From the NCBI GenBank assembly GCA_949297185.1, contig CASFRM010000014.1, positions 1 to 61,149 on the forward strand: 61,149 nt of DNA. The letters are read 5' to 3'. Made by a program: the position numbers and the translations under genes. The notes beneath the pieces are model-generated. The model was not told the DNA's origin. It ran no database searches and saw only the letters and a list, made by a program, of their open reading frames with translations. The stretch is from an uncultured Pseudomonadota bacterium (GTDB taxonomy: Bacteria > Pseudomonadota > Alphaproteobacteria > RF32 > CAG-239). Positions 2,251 through 26,448 of the stretch are shown here, piece by piece. The first letter of the stretch is position 1. Each line of letters begins with the position of its first letter.

Positions 2251-2255
2251 ATAAC

Positions 2256-8215: not shown

Positions 8216-8302
8216 TTAACCTTCCACAACTCAACATACAACAATATGCTTCAAAAAGCAGGATTCACCATATAAGACAGCGGTACAGCCATTATCCCTA
8301 AC

Positions 8303-8374
8303 GGCATAACCGTCATCCCGAACTTGTTTCGGGATCTCTTTTCCACCGGATGCTGAAACAAGTTCAGCATGACG
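8303..8374. repeat. composite REP-like palindromic repeat between mod and the GIY-YIG gene
   Basis: Two hairpins lie in tandem: ATCCCG-aacttgttt-CGGGAT at 8315-8335 and ATGCTGAA-acaag-TTCAGCAT at 8350-8370. Outer arms CGTCAT (8311) and ATGACG (8369) pair across the whole unit. Half of the same design occurs at 311-337. It splits the operon physically and could stop or stabilise the mod transcript. Confidence 0.75.
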
Positions 8375-8388
8375 AAGCGACAACAACA

Positions 8389-11983: not shown

Positions 11984-14900
11984 TTATTTTTTACTCCCAT
12001 AAACTTCTTCATTAGACTTCAGCACAACAAAACAAATCAACTCAAAATCATCCAAGCCCTTGATTTCACCTTGTCCAAAAGTGCTACTGCCATCTGAAAA
12101 TAAACTATCAACCTCGGATTCGTCTTTAACTTGAATAATTGATTGAATAGCTTTACCCAACAAATCGGAATATTTGCTCATGTCCATCCCATCTTTGGTT
12201 TGTTTATTAAACAAAGCACAACGACTTTTGTCCGGCGTTGAAAAGCCCTTACACACCAAGCGCATATAACTCAACAACTTGTGAGGCTCCAAATGATTAT
12301 ACTGCACAGTCCCGTCATCTTTCATATAAACCATGTAAAACGGGTGTAACCTGTTTGGATTATCAATATCTCTGACATTGTTAACATTTCTCAAGATATA
12401 AATAACCCCCGGAGGCAGACCATCTCCGGCAGCCATGGCAACAGCATGCATGCCCATCGGAGCTTTTTCAACATCATCATGGTGTTTTTTATATTCAACC
12501 AAATCCAAACGAAATTCATTTAACCCCAAATCCATGATATTGACACCACCAGAAACATCTTCGGGATCAACAACCTCTTTTTGCAATTTTTCCAGCTGTT
12601 TTCTGCGGTACTCTAAATCTCCTTTTTCGGTTATATCAATCGGATTATCCTCACCAGTTGAGGTCATAACCGTAATTTTCATACGAGTTTCAACACGATT
12701 TTTAAGGTTAATATATTCGTCTAACTTAATGTTTGGCCAAAAGTTAACTAATTGAATTTTATCATTTTGACTGCCAATTCTATCGATTCGACCAAATCTT
12801 TGAATAATTCTAACCGGATTCCAGTGAATATCAAAATTAATCAGATAATCGCAGTCTTGAAGGTTTTGTCCCTCTGAGATACAGTCTGTACCAATTAGAA
12901 TATCAATATCCCCCTCGGGAATTTTATTTAATTTATTGCGATCTTTTGAAATGGGTGAAAAACAGGCCAAAACAGTATTGAAATCAGCAGGCATCTTATC
13001 AATGGTTGTTTTTCCATCTGTTGAGCCAGTAACCATAGCCGTATTTAGCCCAAGTTCATTTTTAATAATCTTGCTAAGATTGTCGTACAAATATTCTGCC
13101 GTGTCTGCAAATGCTGTAAAAATCAAGACTTTTTTATTGCCATCATTTATCGGATGTTTAATTTTGTTGCGAACGACCTCTAACAAAGTTTGGAGTTTTT
13201 TGTCTTTTTCCGGAGTTATGGTCGATACCTCTAATAACAAATGCTCCAAAATCTCCTTATCGGTATTTAAATCAACTCTCCATGCTCGATAATCCATATC
13301 CTTAAAATCAAGCTGATATTTACCACCTGCAGAAATCAAATCAGATAATTCACCATCAAAATCCAATTCTATTTCATCGGAATAGGTACTATATGTCTTG
13401 TTTTTTTCATAATTATCAATTGCCGAAATAGCTTTTTGAATTTGCTCAAGAATTTTTGAGGTTGTAATTCTAAAAGAATAAACCGAACTTTCTAAACGTT
13501 TAAGCAAATTAACAGCCATCAACTGTTTCAAACCAAATTCTCGTCCGGCCAAAGAAATACCCATTTTACCGCGTTTGCCATATTTGCTTTCATATTTAGC
13601 TAAACGACTGGGAAACAAATAAGATGATGGACTATAAACAGATAAGTTTAAGCTTTCCAAAGACTTAAAAATCTCTTCATAACTTATATTTGTATTATCT
13701 GCCAAAGATGGAGACTTGTTAATAGGCGGCAATCTGGTCGGAAACTTACCAATTTCGGTCATATCATAATATTTTTCGATATGTTTGCGGCTTCTGGCGA
13801 TTGTTACGGAATCCAAAACTTCAAAAAAGTCAAAGTCAAGTTCGCTTAATAGCCGCTCTGTTGTTCGTTCTTCTGTGGGTAATTTGCTCCATAGATTAAA
13901 GGCTCTTTGCGCATTGTTAAAAATCGTTGATAGGGGTTTTTGAGTCTTCAATTTTTTATTTAATTCATCTTCAACACCTTCGTATGCCAGTTGCAACTGA
14001 TTTTTTAGATCAACAAACCGATTATTGACCGGAGTAGCAGAAAGCATAAGAACTTTTGTCTTGACACCCGTTTTAATAACATTTTTCATCAATGTTGCAT
14101 AGCGGTTAAAATGCTCAAGCCCGTCTTCATCCGTTGTTACCAATGAGCCATTGCGGAAATTATGGCTTTCATCAATAACTACGAGATCATAGTTACCCCA
14201 ATTAATAAGAGATAAATTTACCCCATTTGTATAGCCACTTTCACGAGATAAATCCGTATGAAACAATACATCATAACGAAGTCTGTCATTAATAAGTGGA
14301 TTATTCTGATAATTTCCCTTGTAATTCATCCAGTTATCAGAAAGTTTTTTAGGACAAAGAACCAAAACATTTTTATTTCTATTTTCATAATATTTGATAA
14401 CCGATAATGCCGTAAAAGTTTTACCTAAACCAACACTATCGGCCAAAATACAGCCATTAAACTTTTCTAGCTTATGAATAATTGCCAGTGCTGCATCTTT
14501 TTGAAAAGAATATAACATATTCCAAACTTGGCTATTTTTAAAACCTGTTGCTTCGTTGGGGATGTTATCCTCTATATCTTCCAAAAACTCGCTAAATATA
14601 TGATATAGCGTTATCATATAAATAAATTCCGGAGAATTCTCTTCATAAACAAGCTCTATATGTTCCAAAACCTGCTCGGTTACATCTTTCATATGCTCTT
14701 TGTCGTTCCAAACTTCCTCAAAACCTTTAATATATTGCTTGGTGTATGGAGCAGGTATTTTCATAGTCATTTTAAATATATCATTTCCACGTTCACTTCC
14801 TAAATCAACCGTAGTGAAACCATCAAGAGGCATATATGTATAATCTTCATTGATATTTAAAAAGCCGACAATTCCGCGCGTTGCTGATATATTTGATTTA

Positions 14901-15241
14901 AATTTAACTTTATTTCTTATCCATTCGGCACATTCTTTAGAAATTGCTTTTTGTGTCATCTGATTTCTCAGGCGAACCTCAAACTCAGTACCATATAAAC
15001 TCTTCTCTCTGTTTAATCTTGGGATATAAAACTCTCGCTTCTCCTTTTCTATCTTATCACCTAAAAAAGCCGGACTGGTAAAAATAAAACGCAACTCATC
15101 AATTTTATTGAGCTGTTTCTTTAAGCTTTCATAAGCATAGATAGAAAAACAAGAAGCCGCTATGGATAATTTACTTCCTGATTTGATTTCCTCTTTCAGA
15201 TCATCAACTAATCTTGTTGTCCTATTATCAAACTGTTGCAT
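11984..15241 (-). CDS. SNF2-like helicase with N-terminal PLD-like domain
   Basis: The N-terminal 120 residues resemble the phospholipase-D-like nuclease fold used in defence helicases (KLSIAASCFSIYAYESLKKQ, LRFIFTSPAFL), but I see no canonical HxK. Helicase motifs follow: Walker A DSVGLGKTF (about 268), VVIDESHNFR (motif II DESH), LMLSATPVNN (motif III), IGTDCISEGQNLQ and QRFGRIDRIGS (motif VI). At 1085 residues it matches PLD-helicases of defence islands. It probably translocates on dsDNA rather than unwinding it. It is the first large gene of the operon, six bases after the small HTH gene, and adjoins DUF4391. Confidence 0.88.
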   Translation of the reverse strand: MQQFDNRTTRLVDDLKEEIKSGSKLSIAASCFSIYAYESLKKQLNKIDELRFIFTSPAFLGDKIEKEKREFYIPRLNREKSLYGTEFEVRLRNQMTQKAISKECAEWIRNKVKFKSNISATRGIVGFLNINEDYTYMPLDGFTTVDLGSERGNDIFKMTMKIPAPYTKQYIKGFEEVWNDKEHMKDVTEQVLEHIELVYEENSPEFIYMITLYHIFSEFLEDIEDNIPNEATGFKNSQVWNMLYSFQKDAALAIIHKLEKFNGCILADSVGLGKTFTALSVIKYYENRNKNVLVLCPKKLSDNWMNYKGNYQNNPLINDRLRYDVLFHTDLSRESGYTNGVNLSLINWGNYDLVVIDESHNFRNGSLVTTDEDGLEHFNRYATLMKNVIKTGVKTKVLMLSATPVNNRFVDLKNQLQLAYEGVEDELNKKLKTQKPLSTIFNNAQRAFNLWSKLPTEERTTERLLSELDFDFFEVLDSVTIARSRKHIEKYYDMTEIGKFPTRLPPINKSPSLADNTNISYEEIFKSLESLNLSVYSPSSYLFPSRLAKYESKYGKRGKMGISLAGREFGLKQLMAVNLLKRLESSVYSFRITTSKILEQIQKAISAIDNYEKNKTYSTYSDEIELDFDGELSDLISAGGKYQLDFKDMDYRAWRVDLNTDKEILEHLLLEVSTITPEKDKKLQTLLEVVRNKIKHPINDGNKKVLIFTAFADTAEYLYDNLSKIIKNELGLNTAMVTGSTDGKTTIDKMPADFNTVLACFSPISKDRNKLNKIPEGDIDILIGTDCISEGQNLQDCDYLINFDIHWNPVRIIQRFGRIDRIGSQNDKIQLVNFWPNIKLDEYINLKNRVETRMKITVMTSTGEDNPIDITEKGDLEYRRKQLEKLQKEVVDPEDVSGGVNIMDLGLNEFRLDLVEYKKHHDDVEKAPMGMHAVAMAAGDGLPPGVIYILRNVNNVRDIDNPNRLHPFYMVYMKDDGTVQYNHLEPHKLLSYMRLVCKGFSTPDKSRCALFNKQTKDGMDMSKYSDLLGKAIQSIIQVKDESEVDSLFSDGSSTFGQGEIKGLDDFELICFVVLKSNEEVYGSKK

Positions 15242-15247
15242 GGTAGT

Positions 15248-15418
15248 TTATTCCCGACAATTGTTAATCCATTGTTCAAGTTCTGATTTTTTAAAACGCC
15301 AGAACTTTCCTACTCTAAAAGCGGGAAGTTGTTTTTCTGCTACCAGTTTATAGACTGTTTTTTTAGCAAGCTTTAAATATGCTGCAACTTCATCAACCGT
15401 TAAAATTTCATTATCCAT
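15248..15418 (-). CDS. small excisionase-type HTH protein, first gene of the R-M operon
   Basis: This 56-residue open frame, MDNEILTVDEVAAYLK to ELEQWINNCRE, is a complete HTH_17/excisionase-family winged-helix domain (TVDEVAAYL, KKTVYKLV, LPAFRVGKFWRF). An AAGGA Shine-Dalgarno lies eight bases before the ATG, and the stop is six bases before the helicase start. Such proteins bind DNA either as recombination directionality factors or as transcriptional regulators. Because it leads the R-M operon and lies far from the recombinase, a regulator of the operon is more likely, though excisionase for the island's serine recombinase remains possible. Confidence 0.85.
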   Translation of the reverse strand: MDNEILTVDEVAAYLKLAKKTVYKLVAEKQLPAFRVGKFWRFKKSELEQWINNCRE

Positions 15419-15467: not shown

Positions 15468-15549
15468 TTTTGCAAGAAAAAACTTCAAAAGGAATAAAAC
15501 GGAGCCAAAAGACTAAAAAAGAGAAACAACTTAATTTTTACTGCTTGAG

Positions 15550-15870
15550 TTATTTCAAAACTTCAACAAATTTGGATAAGGTATGAATTTGTTCATCCGA
15601 AAGGTGCCTAATATTTGCAATCAACAAGGACTCTTCTGCTGCACGTTTGGGACTAATGTTGTCATCAACATTATCATCTAAAATCATGCTTAATCGGCAA
15701 TTAAGAGCTTTTGCAATATCGACCAAGGTCTCAAAATGTGGATAATTGACACCTCTTTCTATGTTTGATATAGCCTCAACAGAAACGTCACATCGCTCAG
15801 CTAAAACTTCTTGTGTCATTTTAGCCGCTTGTCTAATAGCCTTAATTCTCAACCCGATCTTTTTCTTCAT
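15550..15870 (-). CDS. XRE-family transcriptional repressor
   Basis: This 106-residue Cro/C1-type regulator has a five-helix HTH at residues 5-62: IRQAAKMTQEVLAERCDVS, then VEAISNIERGVNYPHFETL and IAKALNCRLSMIL. A short acidic linker and a C-terminal helical tail, probably for dimerisation, follow. It is divergently transcribed from the four-gene operon at 15991-19123. The 120 bp between them hold three AAGTTT(T/A)ACT-type half-sites, one of them within the likely promoter, so it probably represses that operon and itself. Stand-alone XRE repressors of this size commonly control toxic or defence operons in islands. Confidence 0.9.
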   Translation of the reverse strand: MKKKIGLRIKAIRQAAKMTQEVLAERCDVSVEAISNIERGVNYPHFETLVDIAKALNCRLSMILDDNVDDNISPKRAAEESLLIANIRHLSDEQIHTLSKFVEVLK

Positions 15871-15887
15871 GTTTTACCCCACAATTA

Positions 15888-15961
15888 GAAGTTTAACTTA
15901 AAGTTTTTGCTTGAAAACGGAGTAAAACTTGTATAATTTTTATGTAATAGAAGTTTTACTT
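15888..15961. promoter_or_regulatory. shared operator/promoter region of XRE gene and four-gene operon
   Basis: Related boxes occur at 15890-15900 (AAGTTTAACTT), 15921-15930 (reverse complement of AAGTTTTACT) and 15951-15961 (AAGTTTTACTT). A TATAAT lies at 15932-15937 with TTGAAA at 15911-15916 (15 bp apart) or TTGCTT at 15907-15912 (19 bp). The central box falls between the -35 and -10 elements, the expected place for a repressor. Confidence 0.6.
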
Positions 15962-15990
15962 AATAAAATAAAAATCTATAGGCTAACATA

Positions 15991-16875
15991 ATGAAAAATC
16001 GAGCAATGTCTGAAAAATTTTTTTATGAGTTTAAAAGCGGAAAGTATCAAAACATCCTACAAACTGTAAAGCAAGACGATGATTTAATTATGTGCCTGCG
16101 AGGTGATTATATTACCATATATTATAAGAGTATGCGTATATTGGAAATATCCGAAAATGGCGAATATGATGTTGATAAAAACTACGGCATTATTCCTCCA
16201 AACGATGATACAAATTGGATAGAATATTTCAAAAATGCCAAATTTGCCTTGAATTCTTACAATAAAACTAAACAAATGAATAAACTTGAAAAGGAAGTTC
16301 AACAAGCAATTGTTAAAGAAAACAACACAAGCTCTATCTGTAATGAAACCGATTACTTTATTATTGATATAGAATATACTCAGCCGGAATTTGATGGCAG
16401 ATTTGATGCATTAGCTGTCTATTGGCCTAAAAACAAACGCAAAAATGGTCATAATCTACAACTAGCGTTCATTGAAGTTAAAGCCGGCAATAATGCTATT
16501 GGAGGGACTTCCAGTATTGCAAAGCATTATAAATCGGTTATTGATTTTTTGAATAATCTTACCCAGAATAATGAAAAGGAACAATTTATCCAAGATATCG
16601 AAAAAATGATAGCTCAACAGCGAGACTTGGGATTATGGAATATTCCTCATAATAAACACGAAATAACTTTGTCTCGCTCAATCAAGCCTCAATTAATTTT
16701 TATTCTTGCCAACTATAATCAAAAATCAACAGCTCTACGCAATGAATTGGATAAATTTTCAAGCATTAACAGCAAGCCTCCTTTTGAATTGAAATTTGCT
16801 ACGTCATCTTTTGTCGGATATGGCCTATATGGTAGCGGAATGATTACTATAGATAATATATTAGATAAAAAATAA
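15991..16875 (+). CDS. PD-(D/E)XK-like nuclease protein, first gene of the XRE-linked operon
   Basis: The 294-residue protein is not one I can name. Its middle carries a restriction-endonuclease-type core: D139 in DGRFDALAVYW, a loop, then LAFIEVKAG with E162-V-K164. Spacing and strand pattern fit a PD-(D/E)XK nuclease. The N-terminal 110 residues look like a separate alpha/beta domain (CLRGDYITIYYKSMRILEI). It heads four closely spaced genes (9, 11 and 29 bases apart) under the divergent XRE repressor. A DNA- or RNA-cleaving effector is the simplest inference. ATG at 16006 is an alternative start. Confidence 0.65.
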   Translation: MKNRAMSEKFFYEFKSGKYQNILQTVKQDDDLIMCLRGDYITIYYKSMRILEISENGEYDVDKNYGIIPPNDDTNWIEYFKNAKFALNSYNKTKQMNKLEKEVQQAIVKENNTSSICNETDYFIIDIEYTQPEFDGRFDALAVYWPKNKRKNGHNLQLAFIEVKAGNNAIGGTSSIAKHYKSVIDFLNNLTQNNEKEQFIQDIEKMIAQQRDLGLWNIPHNKHEITLSRSIKPQLIFILANYNQKSTALRNELDKFSSINSKPPFELKFATSSFVGYGLYGSGMITIDNILDKK

Positions 16876-16884
16876 GGAGCTAAA

Positions 16885-18081
16885 ATGAAGGCATGCATTA
16901 GAAGGGGCGCAAACCAAATCGGAGGATCTGCTGTTGAAATTATAGCAGATAATCAACAAAGGTTGATTATAGATATTGGGTTACCTCTTGATGCAGAGGA
17001 AAATACCCAAGACCTTCTTCCTCAAATTGACGGTCTTAAACATAAGACACCTGATTTGCTAGGTATCTTAATATCTCATCCCCATCAAGATCATTATGCC
17101 TTAGGATTACATATTGATAAAGACATCCCTGTTTTTATGAGCCATGCGACATCAAAAATAATGGAAGTTGCCACACAGCATAATATTCCTGACGCATTTG
17201 TCTTTAGCAATATCAATATCTTTGAAAATCAAAAAAGTTTTAAAATCGGGAACTTCAACATTACACCCTATTTGGTTGATCATTCGGCCTATGAGGCTTA
17301 TGCTTTTTTAATTGAAGCTGACGGCAAACGTTTGTTTTACAGCGGAGATTTTCGTGCACATGGTCGAAAATCCAAATTATTTGAATCATTCATTAAAAAT
17401 CCTCCGCAACATATAGATACATTATTAATGGAAGGCTCTTGTTTAGGACGAGATAAATCCGAGCAATACGAAAGTGAAACCGAGTTGGAAGAAAAGTTTT
17501 TTGATATATTTAAGCAAACAAGGGGGATAAGCCTTATTCAAACATCTTCGCAAAACATTGATAGAATTGTTACCATCTACCGAGCATGCAAACAAAGTAA
17601 CCGCACATTGGTAATGTCTGGGTATACAGGACATATTCTGCAATGTTTAGAAAATTCACATTTACCAAATTTTACATGGCCGGATGTTAAAAAAATGAGC
17701 CAATCAGTTACAAGAAAACATGAAATATCTGTTGAAATGATAGAAAAGTCTCCCGATAAATACACAATCCTTTTGGGCGGCCAGATATTTAATATGCTAA
17801 AAAACAGTTTCCTTTTAAATAATGAAGCTTCATTTATTTATTCCATGTGGGATGGTTATAAAGAACTATATAAAGAGCGACTGGAACTAATTCAAAATAA
17901 AGGGGTTAATATGTTTGATATTCACACCTCAGGACATGCAGATATTCCAAGTCTTCAAAAATTTGCATCAGCTCTTAATCCTCATCAATTGGTTCCGATT
18001 CATACTTTTCTCCCGCAAGAGTTCAAAAAGCTATTCAATAATGTAGTTATTTATGAAGATAATCAAATATTTACAATATAA
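16885..18081 (+). CDS. MBL-fold/beta-CASP RNase J-like hydrolase
   Basis: The 398-residue metallo-beta-lactamase-fold protein reads IRRGANQIGGSAVEI at the N-terminus, then HPHQDH (65-70), VDHS (131-134), YSGDFRAHG (about 151-159), HTSGHAD (about 346) and PIHTF. These are the metal ligands and beta-CASP motifs of the RNase J/CPSF73 group of RNA-processing nucleases. It is shorter than RNase J (about 550) because the C-terminal domain is lacking, as in solitary MBL exonucleases. It lies nine bases after the nuclease-like gene. In this operon an RNA-degrading role, or processing of the partner's product, is inferred. Confidence 0.85.
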   Translation: MKACIRRGANQIGGSAVEIIADNQQRLIIDIGLPLDAEENTQDLLPQIDGLKHKTPDLLGILISHPHQDHYALGLHIDKDIPVFMSHATSKIMEVATQHNIPDAFVFSNINIFENQKSFKIGNFNITPYLVDHSAYEAYAFLIEADGKRLFYSGDFRAHGRKSKLFESFIKNPPQHIDTLLMEGSCLGRDKSEQYESETELEEKFFDIFKQTRGISLIQTSSQNIDRIVTIYRACKQSNRTLVMSGYTGHILQCLENSHLPNFTWPDVKKMSQSVTRKHEISVEMIEKSPDKYTILLGGQIFNMLKNSFLLNNEASFIYSMWDGYKELYKERLELIQNKGVNMFDIHTSGHADIPSLQKFASALNPHQLVPIHTFLPQEFKKLFNNVVIYEDNQIFTI

Positions 18082-18092
18082 GGACAAAGTAA

Positions 18093-18791
18093 ATGGATTT
18101 AAAAAACAACTTAGAACTTATAATCGGTGGTATTGCATCTACTGTCGCCATGGCCGCAATTATTTTTAGATTTGTCTTTTTTGAAATAGATTTAAGCACA
18201 ACAGCTGATTTTATAAAAGACTTTTCAGAAATTATTGTATCGGTTTTAGTCTTTTTTGTTGCCGTTAAAAGTATCTTAAGCCAGAGTAAAAAAAAGGAAA
18301 CTTTCAAAAAAGTTTTTGATGAAGAGCTTCAAGCATGGATGCAACGCAATCGCCCACTGATTTCTAAAGAGAACCGTTTTCAGGTTGAAAATGCTGACAG
18401 ATATTTTATTTTGTCGGATCATGATCACATTTTTGATATTGGAGAAGATTTTCAAGACGACAAAAAGTATCAAAAAGGTGTGTTTGTTCAACTTCCCCAC
18501 ACATTTACAACTAATGATAAAATTATTTTCTTTATGAACAAGAGTACATTTATGGCACGAGCAAAGGCTAAAGATAGCGATGTAGATGCAGAAATAGATA
18601 AACTCATATATCGAACTGCAAATTGTATTAGTGCCAAATTTGGTAAAGAATTATTTGAGGCAAGTGGAGATCCCAAACATCATCAAATCCATGTCAAAAT
18701 AAAGACCCGAGATCTTGACACGCCAGAAGATGCCAGAACAATAATAAAAATGCTTGATTATGTAATGATTTTATACTTAGCCGCAGCTTAA
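18093..18791 (+). CDS. two-helix inner-membrane protein of the XRE-linked operon
   Basis: I do not recognise this 232-residue protein. Two transmembrane segments lie at about residues 9-32 (IIGGIASTVAMAAIIFRFVF) and 46-62 (EIIVSVLVFFVAVKSIL). A long soluble domain with a helical linker (KKKETFKKVFDEELQAWMQR) follows. The soluble part has no Cys/His metal site or nucleotide-binding motif that I can see. Architecture of two helices plus a cytoplasmic domain is common for membrane-disrupting defence effectors. It lies 11 bases after the MBL gene, so cotranscription is near certain. Whether it anchors the nucleases at the membrane or is itself an effector is open. Confidence 0.6.
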   Translation: MDLKNNLELIIGGIASTVAMAAIIFRFVFFEIDLSTTADFIKDFSEIIVSVLVFFVAVKSILSQSKKKETFKKVFDEELQAWMQRNRPLISKENRFQVENADRYFILSDHDHIFDIGEDFQDDKKYQKGVFVQLPHTFTTNDKIIFFMNKSTFMARAKAKDSDVDAEIDKLIYRTANCISAKFGKELFEASGDPKHHQIHVKIKTRDLDTPEDARTIIKMLDYVMILYLAAA

Positions 18792-18820
18792 ATTTTAACT
18801 CAAACCGAAAGGAAAAAGAC

Positions 18821-19123
18821 ATGAGAAATTTTAAAATAGAAAGAACCGGAGTCGTTCGAGATGAAAGAGGAATGAAAGTTGGTACGGTTCAAAGAAATAC
18901 CCTAAGAGATGCTAGAGGATCCCGCCTCGCAGAAATATCTGGAGATAGAATCAAGGATAGTCGAGGTTTAACTTTAGGAGAAATTAGCGGCTCAAGAATA
19001 AAAACGAGACGAGGAAATACAGTTATGGAAATTGATAAAATTCCTCTTGATTACGAAATGCCAGTTTCTCCGGCAATGGCCGCAGCAATCATGCATTTTT
19101 TTATCAAACCGATTTTTGATTAA
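18821..19123 (+). CDS. small beta-repeat protein, last gene of the XRE-linked operon
   Basis: The 100-residue protein consists of four tandem repeats with a period of about 16 residues: VVRDERGMKVGTV, TLRDARGSRLAEI, RIKDSRGLTLGEI and RIKTRRGNTVMEI (residues 11-71). A short tail rich in Ala and Met follows. Each repeat predicts a beta-hairpin, and the pattern resembles the 4-fold beta-flower type of small repeat protein; I state that from pattern only. The strongly basic, regular surface suggests binding to nucleic acid or assembly. A GAAAGGA ribosome site precedes the ATG and a strong terminator follows, closing the operon. Confidence 0.65.
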   Translation: MRNFKIERTGVVRDERGMKVGTVQRNTLRDARGSRLAEISGDRIKDSRGLTLGEISGSRIKTRRGNTVMEIDKIPLDYEMPVSPAMAAAIMHFFIKPIFD

Positions 19124-19147
19124 AATTTCAGCTTAGTTATAATTGAA

Positions 19148-19175
19148 AATGCCGAGTACTTACTCGGCATTTTTT
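19148..19175 (+). terminator. terminator of the XRE-linked four-gene operon
   Basis: AATGCCGAGTA/TACTCGGCATT forms a 10-11 bp stem with a minimal loop, followed by six T, 25 bases after the last stop codon. Confidence 0.9.
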
Positions 19176-19195
19176 GTTATACAATGGAAAACAAC

Positions 19196-19260
19196 GTATA
19201 TAATATACATAAATACACTTAAATAAAAGTATTGACATTTATAATATACTTTGATATACA
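19196..19260 (+). promoter_or_regulatory. promoter and palindromic boxes of the terminase/recombinase module
   Basis: TTGACA at 19232-19237 is followed after exactly 17 bases by TATACA at 19255-19260. GTATATAATATAC (19196-19208) is a near-perfect palindrome, and TATAATATAC recurs at 19240-19249 within the spacer, suggesting a repressor site. The first gene starts 30 bases downstream. Confidence 0.65.
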
Positions 19261-19289
19261 TAAGCACATAAGAAGGTAAGGAGGGCTCT

Positions 19290-19655
19290 ATGGCATTTGA
19301 AAAATTTATTATCCAAACCAAAAAAAACTTCCCAACTGCGTCAATTTCAACGCTTGGAAGACTTAGCCTAAATGAGGCTGCAATCTCTGCTTTTGGTTTA
19401 CAAACAAAAAACTTTGCAGAACTTTTTTACGATTCGGAAAAGGTGCTTATTGGCATAAAATTTTTGAATTCAGAGACAGAAAACAGTCTCAAAGTTCAAA
19501 GACGCGACAACTCTGGTATGTTTTTATCGGTTAAAAGCTTCTTCAAAGCCTATCAGATTGACTACTCAACTACATATTTTTGTGAAGTATCACAAGATGA
19601 AAAGGATAAAGACTTTTTGATAATAAACTTAAACACCAAGACAGAAAGGAGATAG
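19290..19655 (+). CDS. small conserved-type protein of the mobility module, function unknown
   Basis: The 121-residue protein begins MAFEKF and has an all-beta look: SISTLGRLSLNEAAISAFGL, NFAELFYDSEKVLIGIKFLN and SGMFLSVKSFFKAYQI. The pattern of a start box, a -YDSE--LIGIKF- strand and a -FFKAYQI- helix recalls small proteins found repeatedly in island and phage settings, but I cannot name the family and assign no function. A GGAGGG ribosome site precedes the ATG, and a consensus promoter lies directly upstream. A 195-bp non-coding leader separates it from the ParB-like gene. A DNA-binding or regulatory role is possible, nothing more. Confidence 0.6.
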   Translation: MAFEKFIIQTKKNFPTASISTLGRLSLNEAAISAFGLQTKNFAELFYDSEKVLIGIKFLNSETENSLKVQRRDNSGMFLSVKSFFKAYQIDYSTTYFCEVSQDEKDKDFLIINLNTKTERR

Positions 19656-19850
19656 ACCAATGAACCGTTGACAATAAAAAAAAGAGGTTAAGAAACCGCT
19701 ATTTCCCAACCTCAGAAGAAATGTTAAAAATTAACATCTCCAATCAAGAGTTATCTTAACATTTCTCCGAATAAAATCAATCTTTTTTTTACTTATACCA
19801 TTTGCGGTTTAGGTACAAATTCATTTTTTCAATAAGAAAGGAGAAAGTTA
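19656..19850 (+). other. structured non-coding leader before the ParB/methyltransferase genes
   Basis: No gene is visible. Inverted repeats are dense: GAGGTT/AACCTC (19684-19713), TGTTAA/TTAACA (19722-19736) and the longer AGAAATGTTAA (19717-19727) with TTAACATTTCT (19756-19766). The last two pairings are mutually exclusive, as in attenuators. A T-tract at 19782-19790 follows. Confidence 0.5.
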
Positions 19851-20348
19851 ATGGACAATTCATTAATTATTGAAAATATAAACCTTACTTCGTTAAAAAC
19901 ATATCATAACAATGCCAAAGTACATAATGAAGAGCAGCTTCAAGCCTTAGCTTCGTCAATTAAACAATTTGGCTTTAATTCCCCCATTTTGATTGATGAG
20001 AAAAACGAAATCATTGCCGGGCATGGCCGATTAGAAGCTGCCAAAATTGTCGGATTGACAGAAGTTCCTGCCATCAGGCTAACTCATTTGTCTGAAGTTC
20101 AAAAACGTGCATACCGTCTTGCTGATAACAAAATTGCTGAAAAAGGCGGATGGAATGAAGACATTCTCAAACTTGAACTTTCTGAGTTAGAAAGCCTGTG
20201 TAATGATTTTGACATAACGATCACCGGTTTTAGTTCTGTCGAGTTAGATGTGTTGCTTGATGATACCGGCAATTCACATAAAATTGCAGCCAGGAGATAT
20301 TTGGCACCTTGGCAATCATCGGATTATCTGCGGCAATTCTCAAGATGA
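19851..20348 (+). pseudogene. ParB-like N-terminal part of a frameshifted methyltransferase
   Basis: The first 140 of these 165 residues are a ParB/Srx-fold domain: LKTYHNNAKVHNEEQLQALA, FNSPILIDEKNEIIAGHGRL and VPAIRLTHLSEVQKRAYRLADNK. In phage and island adenine methyltransferases this domain is fused to the catalytic part in one chain. Here, after LDVLLDDTGNSHK the reading frame continues as unrelated residues to a stop at 20348. The expected continuation (LQPGDIWHLGNHRIICGNS) is in the +1 frame of the same DNA. The A-run at 20280-20283 has one base too many for a single chain. It is therefore a frameshifted gene, or a read-through by +1 slippage, or an assembly error. Confidence 0.75.
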
Positions 20349-21123
20349 AGAAACCTTCTCAAAATTGATGCAAACTCAAAAAGCAAAGATGGTTTTGCAA
20401 GATCCTCCTTTTAATGTTGCCATTAACGGGCATGTTTGCGGAAGCGGCAAAACCAAGCATAAAGAATTTGCTTTTGCCTCTGGTGAAATGACTGATGATC
20501 AATTTATCAAATTTTTAGAAACAAACTTCAGACTTTGCGCCTCTTTTTCACAAGAAGGCTCTCTTCACTATAACTTTATGGACTGGCGACATATTCTTCA
20601 TATATCGGTTGCAGGAAAAAATGTTTTTGACTCACTGATTAACCTTTGTGTGTGGAACAAAGGAACTGGCGGCATGGGCAGCTGCTACAGAAGCGCACAT
20701 GAACTCTGCTTTATTTTCAAAAAAGGAAATAAAAGTCACACTAATAATGTTGAGCTTGGCAAAAATGGTCGCTACCGAACAAATGTTTGGAATTATCCCG
20801 GAGTAAATAGTTTTGGTCGTCATCGACAAGACTTAAAAATGCATCCTACAGTAAAACCAGTAGAAATGCTTTATGATGCTATTTTAGATGTAACCAAGCG
20901 TGGTGATTTAGTTTTAGATTCGTTTTTAGGTTCTGGCTCAAGTTTAATTGCTGCCGAGAAAGCACACAGGATCTGCTATGGCATTGAATGCGAGATGCTT
21001 TATATCGATACCACAATCAGACGTTTTCAAAATATCTTCAAGATTGATGCTGTCCGTGAAAAAGACGGTAAGACATACAATCAATTATTGGAAGAACTAA
21101 AATCAGGAGACACTCATGACTAA
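20248..21123 (+). CDS. adenine-specific DNA methyltransferase, catalytic part (frameshifted from ParB-like part)
   Basis: This frame carries a beta-class N6-adenine methyltransferase core: LQPGDIWHLGNHRIICGNS, DPPFNVAIN (motif IV) and LDSFLGSGSSLIAAEK (motif I), ending with IECEMLYIDTTIRRFQ. The annotated ATG at 20248 is only the first one in frame; the true N-terminus should be the ParB-like domain in the preceding frame. Without it the catalytic part still holds both active motifs. Orphan methyltransferases of this type modify phage or island DNA and sit beside terminase genes. Its stop overlaps the DUF5681 start (ATGA-type), so downstream expression depends on it. Confidence 0.85.
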   Translation: MCCLMIPAIHIKLQPGDIWHLGNHRIICGNSQDEETFSKLMQTQKAKMVLQDPPFNVAINGHVCGSGKTKHKEFAFASGEMTDDQFIKFLETNFRLCASFSQEGSLHYNFMDWRHILHISVAGKNVFDSLINLCVWNKGTGGMGSCYRSAHELCFIFKKGNKSHTNNVELGKNGRYRTNVWNYPGVNSFGRHRQDLKMHPTVKPVEMLYDAILDVTKRGDLVLDSFLGSGSSLIAAEKAHRICYGIECEMLYIDTTIRRFQNIFKIDAVREKDGKTYNQLLEELKSGDTHD

Positions 21124-21496
21124 TAAGACTTATGATGTTGGCTATTGCAATCCACCACAACACTCCCGCTTTCAGAAAGGGAAAAGCGGCAATCCTTCAG
21201 GACGTCCTAAGCACAGCCGAAATACCTATAAGCTATTGGAAGATATTTTGGAGCAGAAGGTTTCAATCGTCCAAGATGGTAAGCAAATCAAAATTTCAAA
21301 GAAGGTAGCTATTCTTTTGCAGGCAGTCAATTCTGCGGTTAAAGGCGATACAAAAGCCATTCGCGATTTATTTCCTCATTTGTTGGCTGTCGATGCCAAA
21401 CAAGAAGAGAAAGAACAAAAAAGAGCTTCACTTAAAGCTGATGATTTAAGCATAATTAATAATTTTTTGCAAAATAAGGAGACCGGAAATGGTTAA
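21116..21496 (+). CDS. DUF5681 protein
   Basis: This 126-residue protein shows the DUF5681 signature FQKGKSGNPSGRPK (about 19-32), an Arg/Gly/Pro-rich clasp followed by helices. The family is found beside terminase genes in prophages and islands, and its role is unknown; a small-terminase-like DNA-binding function is sometimes suggested by position. It overlaps the methyltransferase by eight bases and the next gene by eight, so the module is tightly coupled. A second, shorter DUF5681-like protein is encoded after the terminase. Confidence 0.85.
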   Translation: MTNKTYDVGYCNPPQHSRFQKGKSGNPSGRPKHSRNTYKLLEDILEQKVSIVQDGKQIKISKKVAILLQAVNSAVKGDTKAIRDLFPHLLAVDAKQEEKEQKRASLKADDLSIINNFLQNKETGNG

Positions 21497-21980
21497 ATTT
21501 AAAGTAGATAAATTACTCAATTTTTTAGAACAAATAAGTCACAATGCTTCCTCTCCGAAGCAACTACTGCAAAATCTTGCAAAAGATTTCCGGTCGTTGA
21601 GTTCAGAAGAACAAAAAGATTTTCAGCAATTATTGCTTGATATGCTTGATAAAACTTGCAGTTTCAAAAAGATAAAAATCGCTCAGGATGCCGAAAGTAA
21701 AGTAAAAAGGCCTGAATTTCCTAAAGACATTTTTGAAAAATTGCTTTGGGAATTACAGGACAAACCATCTGAATATATTGAACCTCAGCTGGAGATGATG
21801 CGAGCTTGTCTTTCTTTTCCATCGGGCAAACAATCTAAAACAGCATCAAGTGCTGTTCAAGAAATGAAGTTGAGCTTATCTCACAAAGGTTTTTCATTAG
21901 CTAAAAAACGCAACGTCTTCTTAAGATGTTTGTACGAAACATTTTTGCTTCAGGAGCTGTACAATGATATCGATGAATAA
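21489..21980 (+). CDS. unrecognised helical protein between DUF5681 and terminase
   Basis: The 163-residue protein is predicted almost entirely helical, with charged stretches (LLNFLEQISHNASSPKQLLQ, RSLSSEEQKDFQQLLLDMLD). No catalytic motif is visible. It overlaps both neighbours (8 bases with DUF5681 and 17 with the terminase), so it belongs to the packaging-like part of the module. Small helical proteins upstream of large terminases are often small terminase subunits, which is a reasonable but unproven guess here. Confidence 0.6.
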   Translation: MVKFKVDKLLNFLEQISHNASSPKQLLQNLAKDFRSLSSEEQKDFQQLLLDMLDKTCSFKKIKIAQDAESKVKRPEFPKDIFEKLLWELQDKPSEYIEPQLEMMRACLSFPSGKQSKTASSAVQEMKLSLSHKGFSLAKKRNVFLRCLYETFLLQELYNDIDE

Positions 21981-23490
21981 CCAAGACTTGCTTAAGGCTA
22001 TTTTACGCTCAGATCTAAAATCATTTGTCACAAAAGTGTTTTTTGATGTATCACCCTCGGCTCAATATCTTGATAATTGGCATATTGATCTTATTTGCCA
22101 AGAATTAGCACAAATGATAAATGGTCAAGAAACGCGTTTAATAATTAACATTCCACCTCGATATTTAAAATCCATAATCTGTTCGGTTGCGCTTCCGGCT
22201 TTTATTTTAGGACATAATCCGCAAAGCTCTATTATCTGCGTAAGTTATTCGGATGATTTGGCGGCAAAACATGCTAATGATTGTCGCAGAATAATTACCT
22301 CACAATGGTATCAAGAGCTATTTCCCGAAACAGTGTTAAGCAGCAATAAAAAATCAACATCAGATTTTGAAACTACTAAAGGAGGAGGAAGATTTTCTAC
22401 CTCCATAAACGGCACATTAACTGGACGAGGAGCAGATTGGATTATAATTGACGACCCCATAAAACCGACAGATGCAATGTCTGACAATATCAGAGATAAA
22501 GTCAATGATTGGTATCGATCAACTCTATATTCCCGTCTCAACAATAAAGTTGAAGGAAAAATCATTCTGATTATGCAGCGCTTACATGAAAATGACATGA
22601 CCGGATTTTTGCTTGAAAGCGATAAAAAGTTTAAACTCATCAAACTCCCCGTCATTGCGGAAGAAGACGAAACATGGATTTTAAAAAATCAATTTACACA
22701 AACAACGCGTACAATCGAGCGACATCCCGGAGATCTTTTGCATCCACAGAGAGAAAACCTTGAAACGATTAAAGAATTGCAAGATTCTTTAGGCGAATTT
22801 GCCTTTGCAGGGCAATACCAACAAAATCCCGTTCCCCAAAGTGGTGGAATGGTAAAAAAGGACTGGATGTACTTTTATAATGAGCTGCCAGCATTAAAGC
22901 AAATCATTTTGTCTTGGGATACGGCAAGTAAAGATGGCTTTGACAATGCATATTCTGCATACGTCTTACTTGGTGTTGATTACAACCGCAAATATTATTT
23001 GATAGAAGCTAATCGCTATCGGCTCAATTTTCCAGAACTAGTAAAAACAGTAGATAGAATGAATGATCAATGTATTGATTTATTTAAGCAAAAGCCGGAT
23101 CTCCTTATTGAAGATGCCTCATCCGGGACACAACTTATCCAAGTTTTAAGAGGAGAATATGGTCTATCTCCACATGCAATCAGAGCCGAGCAAGACAAAA
23201 TTTCACGTATGCAAGCGGTATCTCTAGCAATAGAGCAACAAAGACTGTTATTTCCTAATCAAGCCGGAATATGGTATCAAACTTTTGAAAAAGAGCTTTT
23301 AACATTTCCAAAATCAAGATTTAAGGATCAATGTGATGCCTTGAGTCAAGCAGTGTGCTTTTTATCTTCAGAGATACAAAATCCGCAAATCAAACCATAT
23401 ATAGCCACCGGCAATCATTTTTACACTAGTGGACATCGATCAACCTATAAAGTACATCCTATGCGAGATCCAAGGAAACTAAGACATTAA
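21964..23490 (+). CDS. phage-type terminase large subunit
   Basis: The 508-residue protein is a full-length large terminase. The ATPase has IINIPPRYLKS as the Walker A-like loop (about 58-68), ICVSYSDDLAAKHANDCRR, GTLTGRGADWIIIDDP as Walker B (about 155-170), and IMQRLHENDMTG as coupling motif. The RNase H-like nuclease has LSWDTASKDG, LIEDASSGTQLI and QCDALSQAV supplying acidic residues. Large terminases pump DNA into capsids, yet no portal, protease or capsid gene is near, so here it either packages the island into a helper phage's capsid or has another DNA-processing use. Nothing suggests decay. Confidence 0.92.
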   Translation: MISMNNQDLLKAILRSDLKSFVTKVFFDVSPSAQYLDNWHIDLICQELAQMINGQETRLIINIPPRYLKSIICSVALPAFILGHNPQSSIICVSYSDDLAAKHANDCRRIITSQWYQELFPETVLSSNKKSTSDFETTKGGGRFSTSINGTLTGRGADWIIIDDPIKPTDAMSDNIRDKVNDWYRSTLYSRLNNKVEGKIILIMQRLHENDMTGFLLESDKKFKLIKLPVIAEEDETWILKNQFTQTTRTIERHPGDLLHPQRENLETIKELQDSLGEFAFAGQYQQNPVPQSGGMVKKDWMYFYNELPALKQIILSWDTASKDGFDNAYSAYVLLGVDYNRKYYLIEANRYRLNFPELVKTVDRMNDQCIDLFKQKPDLLIEDASSGTQLIQVLRGEYGLSPHAIRAEQDKISRMQAVSLAIEQQRLLFPNQAGIWYQTFEKELLTFPKSRFKDQCDALSQAVCFLSSEIQNPQIKPYIATGNHFYTSGHRSTYKVHPMRDPRKLRH

Positions 23491-23546
23491 TAAAACTTGA
23501 CTTAAGACAATGAAAGAGCCTTCATGCAACAATATGGAGGCTCTTA

Positions 23547-23804
23547 ATGTATAAAAAACCGCCTATAGCACACCAATTTCAAAAAGGAAAATCTGGAAAT
23601 CCGAATGGTCGACCCAAAATCTCCGATTCGGCACTATTTGATTTGACTTCCTTGTTTTTGCAAGCGTTACTGTTAGCAAGGAACAAAGATAAAAGTTCCC
23701 GAGACAAATTAAGCAAAATAAGGGAGATTTTGTATGAAAAGGAAAATTCATCTACCCAAAAACATCGAAGAGCTAAAAAAATTATCACAAAAAAAGCAGG
23801 CTGA
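23547..23804 (+). CDS. short DUF5681-like protein
   Basis: This 85-residue protein repeats the signature HQFQKGKSGNPNGRPK (about 9-24) seen at 21116-21496, then a helix and a lysine-rich tail. It is shorter than the usual family member, and its last 71 bases overlap the DUF2924 gene in another frame. It may be a duplicated and shrunken copy. Its ATG follows an AGGCTC-poor site, so translation may be weak. Confidence 0.65.
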   Translation: MYKKPPIAHQFQKGKSGNPNGRPKISDSALFDLTSLFLQALLLARNKDKSSRDKLSKIREILYEKENSSTQKHRRAKKIITKKAG

Positions 23805-24186
23805 GCTTTGGGAGCGTTATGTAAACAGCCCTTACAATCACCAGCTTAGAGCATTGTGGTATTATATTGCTTGCGAAAATGCCAATCTTAAGATTGAACG
23901 CAAACACCTAATTAAGTTAGAAAAATATGCTGAAAACCCTGATGAATGTATGATTAAGGTATACAAAACCAAATATAACCTTCATCCGGGGACAGAAATT
24001 ACTAAAACCTATCACGGCCGACAATATAAGGTTACTATCGCCGAAACGGATGATTTTATCTACAATGGGCAGCATTATAAAACACTGTCTGCCATTGCTA
24101 AAGAAATCTGCGGTATAAAAGTTTCCGGTTATGACTTCTTTGGCTTAAACAACAAACGAGCATTAAAGGAGGCAACACATGACTAG
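23734..24186 (+). CDS. DUF2924 protein, partner of the serine recombinase
   Basis: The 150-residue protein has the DUF2924 layout: ELWERYVNSPYNHQLRALWYY near residue 25, LHPGTEITKTYHGRQYKVTI (about 90) and the hallmark YKTLSAIAKEICGIKVSGYDFFGL at the end. The family is almost always encoded immediately before a large serine recombinase in alphaproteobacterial islands and prophages, as here, with an eight-base overlap. Its role is not established; a recombination accessory or directionality factor would fit. The start at 23734 has GGGAG ten bases upstream and is preferred although it overlaps the preceding gene by 71 bases. Confidence 0.85.
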   Translation: MKRKIHLPKNIEELKKLSQKKQAELWERYVNSPYNHQLRALWYYIACENANLKIERKHLIKLEKYAENPDECMIKVYKTKYNLHPGTEITKTYHGRQYKVTIAETDDFIYNGQHYKTLSAIAKEICGIKVSGYDFFGLNNKRALKEATHD

Positions 24187-25828
24187 AATAAATTGTGCCG
24201 TCTATGTTCGTAAATCTACCGAAAAAGGATTGGAGCTTGAGTTTAATTCATTGCATAATCAAGAAGAAGCATGCCGAAGCTATATATTATCACAAGCCTT
24301 TAACAACTGGGAGTATTTCAAAACTTATACCGATGGCGGAATTTCTGGTGGCACCATGGAACGTCCGGCCTTAAAACAAATGCTTGAAGATATTCGACAT
24401 GGATTAATACAGACAGTGGTGGTTTATAAAGTTGATCGTTTGTCCCGCTCAATTATGGACTTCCATAATATGATGAAAGAATTTGATAAATATGGTTGCA
24501 GCTTTGTTTCAATTACCCAAGCCTTTGACACGTCGACTTCCATGGGCAAGCTAACACTAAACATGCTGCTATCATTTGCTCAATTTGAGCGAGAGGTGTC
24601 TTCGGAACGTGTCCGTGATAAAATCCGTGCCAGTAAAGCCAAAGGCCTATGGACTGGAGGGATACCTAAACTAGGTTATGATATTATAGATAAAAAACTG
24701 GTTATAAATTCAATAGAAGCTGAACAGGTAAAAGATATTTTTGAAAGCTATTTAAAATGTGAATCTTTGGCAGAACTTGAAACCTTTGTCCAAACCAAAG
24801 GAATTACCCATAAACATTGGATTACTAATAAAGGTGTTGAGAAAGGCGGAAAACCATTAAAAACATCGGCATTACATAGGTTATTGCATGAAAAAATATA
24901 TTTAGGTTTAATTGAAAACAAGAAAACAGGACAAACTTTCAAAGGACACCATCAAGCAATTATCTCCAAAGAATTATGGGAGCAGGTACAAAATAAGCTG
25001 AAAGAAAATGATAAATGCAAAAATTCCAATCATGTACCAAATAATAATTTACTTACCGGAAAGCTGTTTAACACAGAAGGAACCGCCTTTGGCAACCAAG
25101 CAAACAGCAAAAAGAAAAGTACAAAACGCTATTATTACGCAATAAAAGGTTTATTTCTGCCGACAGAGCAAATTGATAAACTTACAAAAGAAGCAATAAG
25201 CGAAATTCTTGACAGCAATCTCAATGGAATAAACAAAGACAGTTCACTTGCTTTAAAGTTAATAAATTTTGCAGATATGGACTATTTAAAGCAGCGCAAC
25301 TTTATCCGTAACTTTGTTAACAAAATAATTTATCAAAAAGATCGCTTAACATTCTTTTTTAACACCGATCCTTTAATTCTATCAGCTTATACTGGTAATG
25401 CGTTAAACGAAAATAACAATCCATTAGACTTTATAGCCGACAATACCAACAATCAAATCATCTATGAAAAACAAGTGATTATTAATCGCGGATTATCAAG
25501 TAATATCTATAATGCCGGAAAAGTCGGACTGATGAGTATTAATGATAACAATCGCCTCATTGTCCGTGCCTTAGCTTATGCTTGGAAATTTAAGAAACTC
25601 TACGAAAAGGGACTAAGCACCGATGACATAGCCAAACAAGAAAAAATGTCGAAACGAACTATCTACAAATACCTAAATCTTGCCTACCTCTCACCAAGAA
25701 TAATTAATCAACTTCTCGATGGAACCTTAAACATTAACCTGCAAACACTATTTGAAATAGCTTCTAAAAACCTGAGTTTTGACGAGCAGGAAAAGATTCT
25801 AAATCTTCAATTTCTTGAGAATCTTTAA
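24179..25828 (+). CDS. large serine recombinase
   Basis: The 549-residue site-specific recombinase breaks and rejoins DNA through Ser13 (AVYVRKSTEKG). The resolvase domain spans about 1-150, with DRLSRSIMDF and the FAQFEREVSSERVRDKI helix. A recombinase domain with GGIPKLGYDI and LIENKKTGQTFKGHHQAII follows. The C-terminal 200 residues are helical, with an HTH-like segment KLYEKGLSTDDIAKQEKMSK. No zinc-ribbon Cys pairs are present. Length and start are standard. It overlaps DUF2924 by eight bases. This enzyme is the most likely integrase of the island, and it lies near the right-hand tRNA-Ser. Confidence 0.92.
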   Translation: MTRINCAVYVRKSTEKGLELEFNSLHNQEEACRSYILSQAFNNWEYFKTYTDGGISGGTMERPALKQMLEDIRHGLIQTVVVYKVDRLSRSIMDFHNMMKEFDKYGCSFVSITQAFDTSTSMGKLTLNMLLSFAQFEREVSSERVRDKIRASKAKGLWTGGIPKLGYDIIDKKLVINSIEAEQVKDIFESYLKCESLAELETFVQTKGITHKHWITNKGVEKGGKPLKTSALHRLLHEKIYLGLIENKKTGQTFKGHHQAIISKELWEQVQNKLKENDKCKNSNHVPNNNLLTGKLFNTEGTAFGNQANSKKKSTKRYYYAIKGLFLPTEQIDKLTKEAISEILDSNLNGINKDSSLALKLINFADMDYLKQRNFIRNFVNKIIYQKDRLTFFFNTDPLILSAYTGNALNENNNPLDFIADNTNNQIIYEKQVIINRGLSSNIYNAGKVGLMSINDNNRLIVRALAYAWKFKKLYEKGLSTDDIAKQEKMSKRTIYKYLNLAYLSPRIINQLLDGTLNINLQTLFEIASKNLSFDEQEKILNLQFLENL

Positions 25829-26267: not shown

Positions 26268-26409
26268 TTTCCCCTCGCTAAAGTGACTCGCATAAAATCG
26301 GCAATGTATGTAACTGCCGGAAATTTTGCGTTTTTTGATTTTAAATGAGCTTACCATAGTCAATTTATCAAAGTCAACCGCCCGCAAAGCCCGCAATACC
26401 GGAGGATGC

Positions 26410-26435
26410 AAAAAAAGACGCTATATCTAAGCGTC
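26410..26435 (-). terminator. terminator of tRNA-Ser
   Basis: On the minus strand GACGC/GCGTC brackets a nine-base loop and is followed by seven T, starting 13 bases beyond the tRNA CCA end. Confidence 0.7.
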
Positions 26436-26448
26436 CTTTCAAATAAAC

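What the first reader, a model, noticed from the sequence alone, without database searches (positions are those of the whole stretch)
15550..19123. XRE-controlled four-gene operon: nuclease-like, RNase J-like, membrane and beta-repeat proteins
A stand-alone XRE repressor faces an operon of four tightly spaced genes: a PD-(D/E)XK-like protein (D139, E162-V-K164), an MBL/beta-CASP RNase-like hydrolase (HPHQDH), a two-helix membrane protein and a basic four-repeat beta protein. The combination of two nucleases with a membrane component under a repressor, between an R-M operon and a mobility module, looks like an undescribed defence or toxin system. The families are read from motifs; the grouping as one system is inferred from spacing, shared terminator and operator layout.
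Basis: partly seen in the sequence, partly recalled or inferred. Interest (0 to 1): 0.8.

Follow-up and report, generated by a model that had tools for sequence, protein, structure and literature searches.

The report
Mobile nuclease pair with swappable partner
The flagged operon is built on a recurring pair of genes, a constant RNase J-like nuclease and a fast-changing partner that looks like a restriction-enzyme nuclease, which travels on mobile DNA and is probably an undescribed antiviral system; the operon's other two genes look like local extras.

Summary
In detail: a divergent XRE gene and four tightly spaced genes, PD-(D/E)xK-like, RNase J-like beta-CASP hydrolase (MBL), two-helix membrane protein (TM) and beta-flower protein (BF), closed by a terminator. 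One four-gene system is not supported: in what I searched, TM occurs only in near-identical copies of one mobile element. The core is PD+MBL. Of 28 distinct MBL loci (genomes, plasmids, viral contigs) 19 have the same PD family next to, overlapping or fused with MBL; three more have another nuclease-like neighbour (by eye); six have neither. Leave-one-out profiles recover all 16 PD proteins tested. Ten residues, including an E, D-x-E, D and E-x-K, are invariant in 14 PD proteins. PD is exchanged around a fixed MBL: two loci whose MBL proteins are 98% identical have PD proteins 18% identical. The window element lies in an island with restriction systems; a relative's island carries Gabija. No searched library model or paper describes the pair. 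Best reading: an undescribed mobile two-nuclease module, probably anti-phage, with PD as variable partner and MBL as constant nuclease.

The parts
15550..15870 (-). XRE/Cro-type HTH protein, 106 aa, divergent from the operon; putative repressor
   Evidence: HTH_3 E 6.1e-16; 68.6% identical XRE divergent from PD+MBL in G024; not found by tblastn near the other MBL loci
15871..15990 (.). XRE-PD intergenic region; three AAGTTTTACTTA-like sites at 15889-15900, 15919-15930, 15951-15962 (possible operator)
   Evidence: pattern chosen after the fact, chance level window-wide; no promoter-scan hit here
15991..16875 (+). PD: PD-(D/E)xK-like protein, 294 aa, variable partner; E100, D126-x-E128, D139, E162-V-K164
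   Evidence: 10 invariant columns in 14 relatives; leave-one-out profiles; no Pfam, NCBIfam or PDB support for the fold
16885..18081 (+). MBL: RNase J-like metallo-beta-lactamase/beta-CASP hydrolase, 398 aa, constant component
   Evidence: Lactamase_B_2 49.5 bits, RMMBL 24.8 bits; catalytic motifs invariant in 7 aligned relatives; nearest solved chain EF2904 2az4 E 1.1e-33, then RNase J
18093..18791 (+). TM: two N-terminal hydrophobic helices plus a soluble domain, 232 aa; accessory
   Evidence: hydropathy; 2 of 58 relatives, no plasmid, viral-contig or PDB match; in 31 loci only the near-identical copies
18821..19123 (+). BF: beta-flower protein, 100 aa, with C-terminal hydrophobic segment; accessory
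   Evidence: PF21785 E 4.1e-9, 36.7 bits, below cut-off 38
19145..19174 (+). intrinsic terminator closing the operon
   Evidence: fold -20.2 kcal/mol for 19120-19180, z -6.0; not listed by the scan
15544..25797 (.). mobile block shared with G025 (96.7% identity): XRE, operon, ParB/methylase genes, terminase large subunit, serine integrase
   Evidence: blastn; PHROGs
21964..23490 (+). terminase large subunit of the element
   Evidence: phrog_38 E 4.5e-98
24179..25828 (+). serine-type integrase of the element
   Evidence: phrog_95 integrase E 2.9e-96

Best explanation
The heart of the finding is a two-gene nuclease module, PD+MBL, carried on mobile elements, plasmids and defence-type islands. 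Shown by sequence: the pair is conserved, usually adjacent or overlapping and once fused; MBL keeps a beta-CASP active site; PD keeps an E / D-x-E / D / E-x-K set typical of PD-(D/E)xK nucleases; PD changes far faster than MBL and is replaced in situ. Inferred: the two proteins form a complex in which MBL is the constant nuclease (more likely acting on RNA, since it is closest to RNase J and EF2904) and PD is the variable part that recognises, or first cuts, invading nucleic acid, so that PD is what phages select against. In the window the pair is transcribed from a region faced by an XRE gene, probably a repressor that keeps a costly nuclease low until infection or element induction. TM and BF are an element-specific add-on, perhaps tethering the complex to, or acting on, the membrane. 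The most likely role is anti-phage (or anti-plasmid) defence.
For: Core pair: PD family beside MBL in 11 of 15 genomes found by MBL profile searches (neighbours; profiles), 7 of the 9 best plasmid records (6 of 8 after removing a duplicate; for two of them adjacency is read from coordinates only) and 2 of 5 distinct viral-contig loci. The 7 plasmid records with a PD match all carry the MBL close by (gaps from overlap to about 0.65 kb). In-frame MBL-PD fusion in G516. Leave-one-out profiles: 16 of 16 PD proteins recovered, E 2.3e-13 to 4.6e-55; with the full model the only other hit among 2061 ORFs was the second frame of one frameshifted PD. Profile-profile links: A4-A7 97.7%, A7-A8 99.8%, A4-A8 76.2%. 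Ten invariant columns. PD swap: G551 and G645 loci have flanks, MBL and HAD-like gene 93-99% identical in DNA but PD unalignable, protein identity 98% against 18%; PD identity is lower than MBL identity in 101 of 105 pairs. Context: window island with type II-like and type III restriction genes; G025 island with GajA 3.3e-158, GajB 4.6e-194 and HEC-05; a IIG-type restriction gene beside the Rhizobium copy, DUF262 beside the Prevotella MBL, a PycTM-like gene beside the G569 copy. Patchy presence: MBL subfamily in 8 of 289 and 9 of 398 genomes.
Against: No function was tested. PADLOC neighbours are guilt by association, and I checked only chosen neighbours. The PD fold rests on motifs: no Pfam, NCBIfam or PDB hit, structure prediction off. 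6 of 28 MBL loci have no PD-like neighbour, and the three counted as other nuclease-like (L035, L037, L061) are by eye; L061 has E-V-E, not E-x-K. Several seed MBLs were first reached through PD, so 4 of the 15 genomes are not independent; without them 7 of 11. PD in the window against G025 shows no sign of positive selection (pN 0.032, pS 0.109). G551 and G645 are given as different families although their contigs are nearly identical, so one may be misbinned. The C-terminal P-x-H-T pattern was found in 11 of 15 MBLs and H-T-S-G-H-A in 14 of 15.
Confidence: 0.5

Rival explanations
1. Element-maintenance or conflict module: PD+MBL is a selfish stabiliser or an inter-element weapon that kills plasmid- or element-free or competing-element cells, not a phage defence.
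For: Carried on a serine-integrase element, plasmids and viral contigs; XRE gene as in toxin-antitoxin and phage immunity loci (RstR, HipB and TrbA models are among its weak hits).
Against: No small antitoxin gene recurs; XRE was found only with the window copies and G024; both genes look enzymatic; neighbours are often defence genes.
Confidence: 0.2
2. RNA or DNA processing module for the host or the element (for example maturation of an element RNA or repair of broken ends), with no direct role in conflict.
For: MBL is closest to RNase J and EF2904; a HAD-like gene follows the pair in G562, G631, G551 and G645, and RNase_T exonuclease genes precede a second MBL in G024.
Against: Patchy presence, mobile context and replacement of PD around a fixed MBL are unusual for housekeeping processing.
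Confidence: 0.17
3. The four genes XRE-PD-MBL-TM-BF act as one four-component system; loci without TM and BF are reduced forms or use other membrane parts.
For: Tight spacing and a shared terminator; a beta-flower-like gene lies in the same strand run as MBL in G221 (PF21785 E 2.3e-6, below cut-off) and a beta-flower gene lies about 2.9 kb from the MBL on the Prevotella plasmid.
Against: TM has no match in 31 loci other than the near-identical copies; the two beta-flower cases lack the PD family; beta-flower genes occur in 7 of 58 genomes of the class and in many copies in the window's own genome.
Confidence: 0.13

Closest known systems
HamM-type MBL nuclease + trypsin-like protease module (Hachiman, AVAST, Lamassu, DRT; PMC12799240, passages read)
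   Same: An MBL-fold nuclease paired with a partner gene that recurs in defence loci.
   Different: HamM is a ComEC-like MBL deoxyribonuclease activated by a protease; here the MBL is of the RNase J/beta-CASP type and the partner is PD-(D/E)xK-like, with no protease gene among the neighbours read.
Cas14 of type VII CRISPR-Cas (PMC10910872, PMC12669027, passages read)
   Same: A beta-CASP nuclease used as an immune effector, with target RNA cleavage shown there.
   Different: Cas14 works with Cas7/Cas5 and a CRISPR array in archaea and has a Cas10-like C-terminal domain; the neighbours read here show none of these (I ran no CRISPR-array search).
RNase J / EF2904 (PDB 2az4) beta-CASP hydrolases
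   Same: Fold signature and catalytic motifs.
   Different: 398 aa; 60.1 bits against a cut-off of 400 for TIGR00649; linked to a variable nuclease-like partner and mobile DNA.
Beta-flower proteins PF21785 (PMC10584680, passages read)
   Same: BF repeats and C-terminal hydrophobic segment.
   Different: Just below the Pfam cut-off; gene context with a nuclease pair.
Restriction-type PD-(D/E)xK nucleases
   Same: Invariant E, D and E-x-K.
   Different: No methyltransferase in the module; no detectable sequence similarity to a Pfam or PDB family.

Membership tests
RNase J (TIGR00649 subfamily) | score over the curated cut-off (400 bits) | tested here: not met
   60.1 bits
MBL/beta-CASP hydrolases | HxHxDH, later H and D ligands, acidic motif A, C-terminal His motifs | tested here: met
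   invariant in the 7-sequence alignment; by pattern HxHxDH 15 of 15, HTSGHA 14 of 15, PxHT 11 of 15. That motif C His points to RNA is recalled from the literature (the paper was not held)
PD-(D/E)xK nuclease superfamily | conserved E / D / E-x-K residues | tested here: met
   E126, D142, E144, D169, E186, K188 (L010 numbering) invariant in 14 of 14
PD-(D/E)xK nuclease superfamily | alpha-beta-beta-beta-alpha-beta core fold | not testable with these tools
5-fold beta-flower PF21785 | score over the gathering cut-off | tested here: not met
   36.7 bits against 38, E 4.1e-9; NCBI names a 32% similar Prevotella protein 5-fold beta-flower
Systems in PADLOC-DB 2023 | hit of a component to a system model | tested here: not met
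   MBL, TM, BF no hit; PD only Cmr5 at E 0.0027, taken as chance; PD and MBL of G562 and G631 no hit
Anti-phage defence system | protection against phage | not testable with these tools
   context only
HamM-protease module | adjacent gene with a trypsin-like protease domain | tested here: inconclusive
   partner genes read are PD-like; Pfam scans of chosen partners showed no protease
Type VII CRISPR (Cas14) | cas7/cas5 and CRISPR array | not tested
   no array search run; no Cas gene noticed in the neighbours scanned

The most novel reading that the evidence does not exclude
A new class of bacterial immunity in which a constant beta-CASP (RNase J-type) nuclease is armed by interchangeable PD-(D/E)xK partner cassettes: the partner is the recognition half and is exchanged as a whole gene in the arms race with phages, while the blade stays the same.
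Probability: 0.33. Interest if true: 0.85.

Novelty: new variant of a known kind. Interest (0 to 1): 0.6.

Why it matters
If true, it adds an RNase J-type nuclease with an exchangeable partner to the known designs of bacterial immunity, and gives a natural experiment: near-identical loci that differ only in the PD gene. That makes the question of how recognition is separated from execution directly testable. It also puts a beta-flower protein, a fold without known function, in a defined gene context.

Tried and rejected
Rejected: the Prevotella 233-aa gene beside a beta-flower gene as a TM relative (same length by coincidence; BLASTP E 2.2). Rejected: PD or TM on phage records, plasmids or viral contigs by the window's own sequences (no match); only the MBL profile reached plasmids and viral contigs, and three weak MBL hits in phage records were not opened. 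Rejected as evidence of transfer to Bacilli: L016, a 3.5-kb contig with 99.5-100% identical proteins in a Bacilli-labelled MAG, is more likely misbinned; no other match in 295 genomes of that phylum. Rejected: positive selection on PD in the window copies. PD counts by the early profiles are lower bounds: 3 of 58, 2 of 385, 3 of 398; they missed PDs that later turned up beside MBL in the same genomes (G098, G202, G516, G551, G561, G569, G645).

Dropped rows: of 25 plasmid records I opened 7 and counted the 9 with MBL identity of 30% or more; H10-H25 are not counted. Of 8 viral loci two weak ones (L064, L065) are not counted and L058/L059 count once. Near-identical window copies (G025=L017, L018, L016) and the two G024 MBLs are not in the 28. 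The G294 MBL (L038) has lost most motifs by pattern and may be decayed; it is counted among the six without PD.
Full report
Observation. The window holds a 106-aa XRE gene on the minus strand and, divergently, four plus-strand genes with gaps of 9, 11 and 29 bp, followed by a strong hairpin with a U tract. Family scans give HTH_3 for XRE, Lactamase_B_2 plus RMMBL for MBL, PF21785 beta-flower just below its cut-off for the last gene, and nothing convincing for PD and TM. The operator layout is suggestive only.

Where it sits. Window 15544-25797 is 96.7% identical to a block in a relative of the same genus (G025), from just outside XRE to near the end of a serine integrase gene; the block also holds ParB-like/methylase genes and a terminase large subunit. 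Left of it the two genomes differ: the window has type II-like restriction genes (1177-4220), a type III restriction system (4878-10374), a PDC-S05 gene and an HKD/Snf2 helicase; G025 has HEC-05, Gabija A and B and a type II methyltransferase. Short matches at 835-1040 and, beside a tRNA-Ser gene, at 26277-26541 suggest that the whole stretch between is a variable island; that is an inference from two genomes.

Is it one four-gene unit? No. In G024 XRE (68.6% identical), PD (about 55%) and MBL (64%) are kept while TM and BF are absent and a WYL regulator follows. In G318, G562 and G631 PD and MBL are adjacent, again without TM or BF. In tblastn over 31 loci TM was found only in the near-identical copies, and BF there plus one distant hit on the Prevotella plasmid.

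The PD+MBL core. Searching genomes with an MBL profile (E at most 1e-50) gave 8 of 289 genomes of the class and 9 of 398 of the phylum, 15 genomes in all. Reading their neighbours and testing with PD profiles, 11 of 15 have the PD family beside MBL: own, G318, G098, G202, G561, G569 (frameshifted), G516 (fused), G551, G562, G631, G645. Two (G321, G311) have other genes with D and E-x-K motifs, by eye. Two (G221 with an ankyrin gene; G294, whose MBL has lost most motifs) have neither. Four of the 15 had first been reached through PD or are the window itself; without them the count is 7 of 11. Among plasmids, 9 records hold an MBL of at least 30% identity; 7 of them, 6 after removing a duplicate, carry PD, adjacent or overlapping except in Ochrobactrum where about 0.6 kb lies between; for Cereibacter and Sphingomonas changnyeongensis I have only match coordinates. 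R. leguminosarum and Prevotella lack PD. Among viral contigs, 5 distinct MBL loci were held; the PD model, built before, hits the gene just upstream in two (E 1.7e-33 and 2.5e-29), while a third has a different gene with D and E-V-E by eye and two have none. In all: 19 of 28 with the PD family, 3 with another nuclease-like neighbour by eye, 6 without.

PD is one family. Leaving each of 16 PD proteins out in turn, a profile of the others recovers it at E 2.3e-13 to 4.6e-55; the model of all 16 hits, among 2061 ORFs of the loci, only those 16 and the other frame of the frameshifted one. The 2061 include an out-of-family MBL locus on an E. coli plasmid, which gave no hit. Profile comparisons join the three subgroups (the A4-A8 link is weak, 76%). 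In 14 aligned proteins, 18-37% identical to the first, ten columns never vary; they include E126, D142, E144, D169, E186 and K188 of the Rhizobium protein, which are E100, D126, E128, D139, E162 and K164 of the window protein. This fits a PD-(D/E)xK active site, but no library or PDB entry confirms the fold, and structure prediction was off.

MBL is a beta-CASP enzyme. HxHxDH, the later His and Asp ligands, the acidic motif and the C-terminal His motifs are invariant in seven aligned sequences; in 15 loci HxHxDH is found in all, HTSGHA in 14 and PxHT in 11 by pattern. The nearest solved chain is EF2904 (2az4, E 1.1e-33), then RNase J. It is not an RNase J by NCBIfam's cut-off (60.1 against 400 bits).

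PD is exchanged. The G551 and G645 loci share flanks, MBL and HAD-like gene at 93-99% DNA identity, but the PD genes cannot be aligned (43%); as proteins MBL is 98% and PD 18% identical (BLASTP finds 24% over 87 aa around the motifs). G562 and G551 have MBL 67% and PD 16%. PD identity is below MBL identity in 101 of 105 pairs. In the window copies PD differs more than its neighbours (95.4% DNA against 98.5% MBL, 99.9% TM, 100% BF for window against L017), with most changes and a 12-nt indel in about 120 nt near the 3' end, but synonymous changes are raised too, so this is an exchanged or older allele, not a sign of positive selection. The two G551/G645 contigs are so alike that one may be misbinned; the allele difference stands.

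A fusion. In G516 one reading frame runs from MBL into PD without a stop; the other two frames are closed at the junction. The contig ends inside PD.

Accessories. Recurring neighbours of MBL, mostly by eye, are an IetA-like AAA ATPase (G562, G631, G098 by profile; G551 and G645 by eye), a HAD-like gene (G562, G631, G551, G645), WYL regulators (G024, G221, Prevotella), a 124-158-aa protein with G-I-F-W (L009, L010, L011, L013), a 61-68-aa repeat protein (L010, L011, L014, L040), and a beta-flower-like gene in the same strand run as MBL in G221. Beta-flower folds resemble Tubby domains that bind membrane lipids (PMC10584680, passages). TM plus BF may thus be a membrane-side add-on.

Mechanism. 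Shown: gene pairing, fusion, motifs, exchange, mobile and defence-type context. Inferred: complex formation, RNA as MBL's target, PD as recognition part, XRE as repressor, anti-phage role. I put 0.5 on this whole reading; that PD+MBL is a genuine module I hold at about 0.95.

Known or new. Closest are the HamM MBL-protease module (PMC12799240, passages) and Cas14 of type VII CRISPR (PMC10910872 and PMC12669027, passages). Searches of the paper library for the pair listed no paper that, from titles, abstracts or the passages I read, describes it. The library lacks most subscription papers and bioRxiv as such, PADLOC-DB is of 2023, so the pair may be described elsewhere.

Noticed in passing
window 19851-20348 and 20248-21123: ParB-like and methylase parts are two overlapping ORFs here but one 450-aa ORF in G025 (L005 13372-14724): a frameshift in this copy.
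   Followed up: partly
window 11984-15418: HKD+Snf2 helicase (PADLOC C3a139 E 3e-117) preceded by a 56-aa HTH over the NCBIfam cut-off for MAD1 of the methylation-associated defence system (85.9 against 80 bits).
   Followed up: no
window 26449-26540: tRNA-Ser beside the right end of the variable island.
   Followed up: partly
G000:C6:91622-96942: Long beta-flower repeat frames (1107 and 1469 aa) in the window's own genome; similar ones in G006, G036, G055, G083.
   Followed up: no
L006 438-3201: A second MBL of the family in G024, about 5 kb from the first, preceded by two RNase_T-like exonuclease ORFs.
   Followed up: partly
L010 7230-7436, L011 within 5993-6475, L014 4722-4928, L040 2212-2397: A 61-68-aa two-repeat protein with Y-D-E-x-G near MBL genes in four loci; no Pfam family.
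   Followed up: partly
L009 4549-4953, L010 4516-4992, L011 4552-4995, L013 6247-6621: A small protein with a G-I-F-W start next to MBL in four plasmid loci; no Pfam family for those scanned.
   Followed up: partly
L052 6263-8368: 701-aa protein with a PycTM-like region (E 2.8e-10) just downstream of PD+MBL in G569.
   Followed up: no
L016 (3495 bases): Nearly identical operon on a short contig in a Bacilli-labelled MAG; probably misbinned.
   Followed up: partly
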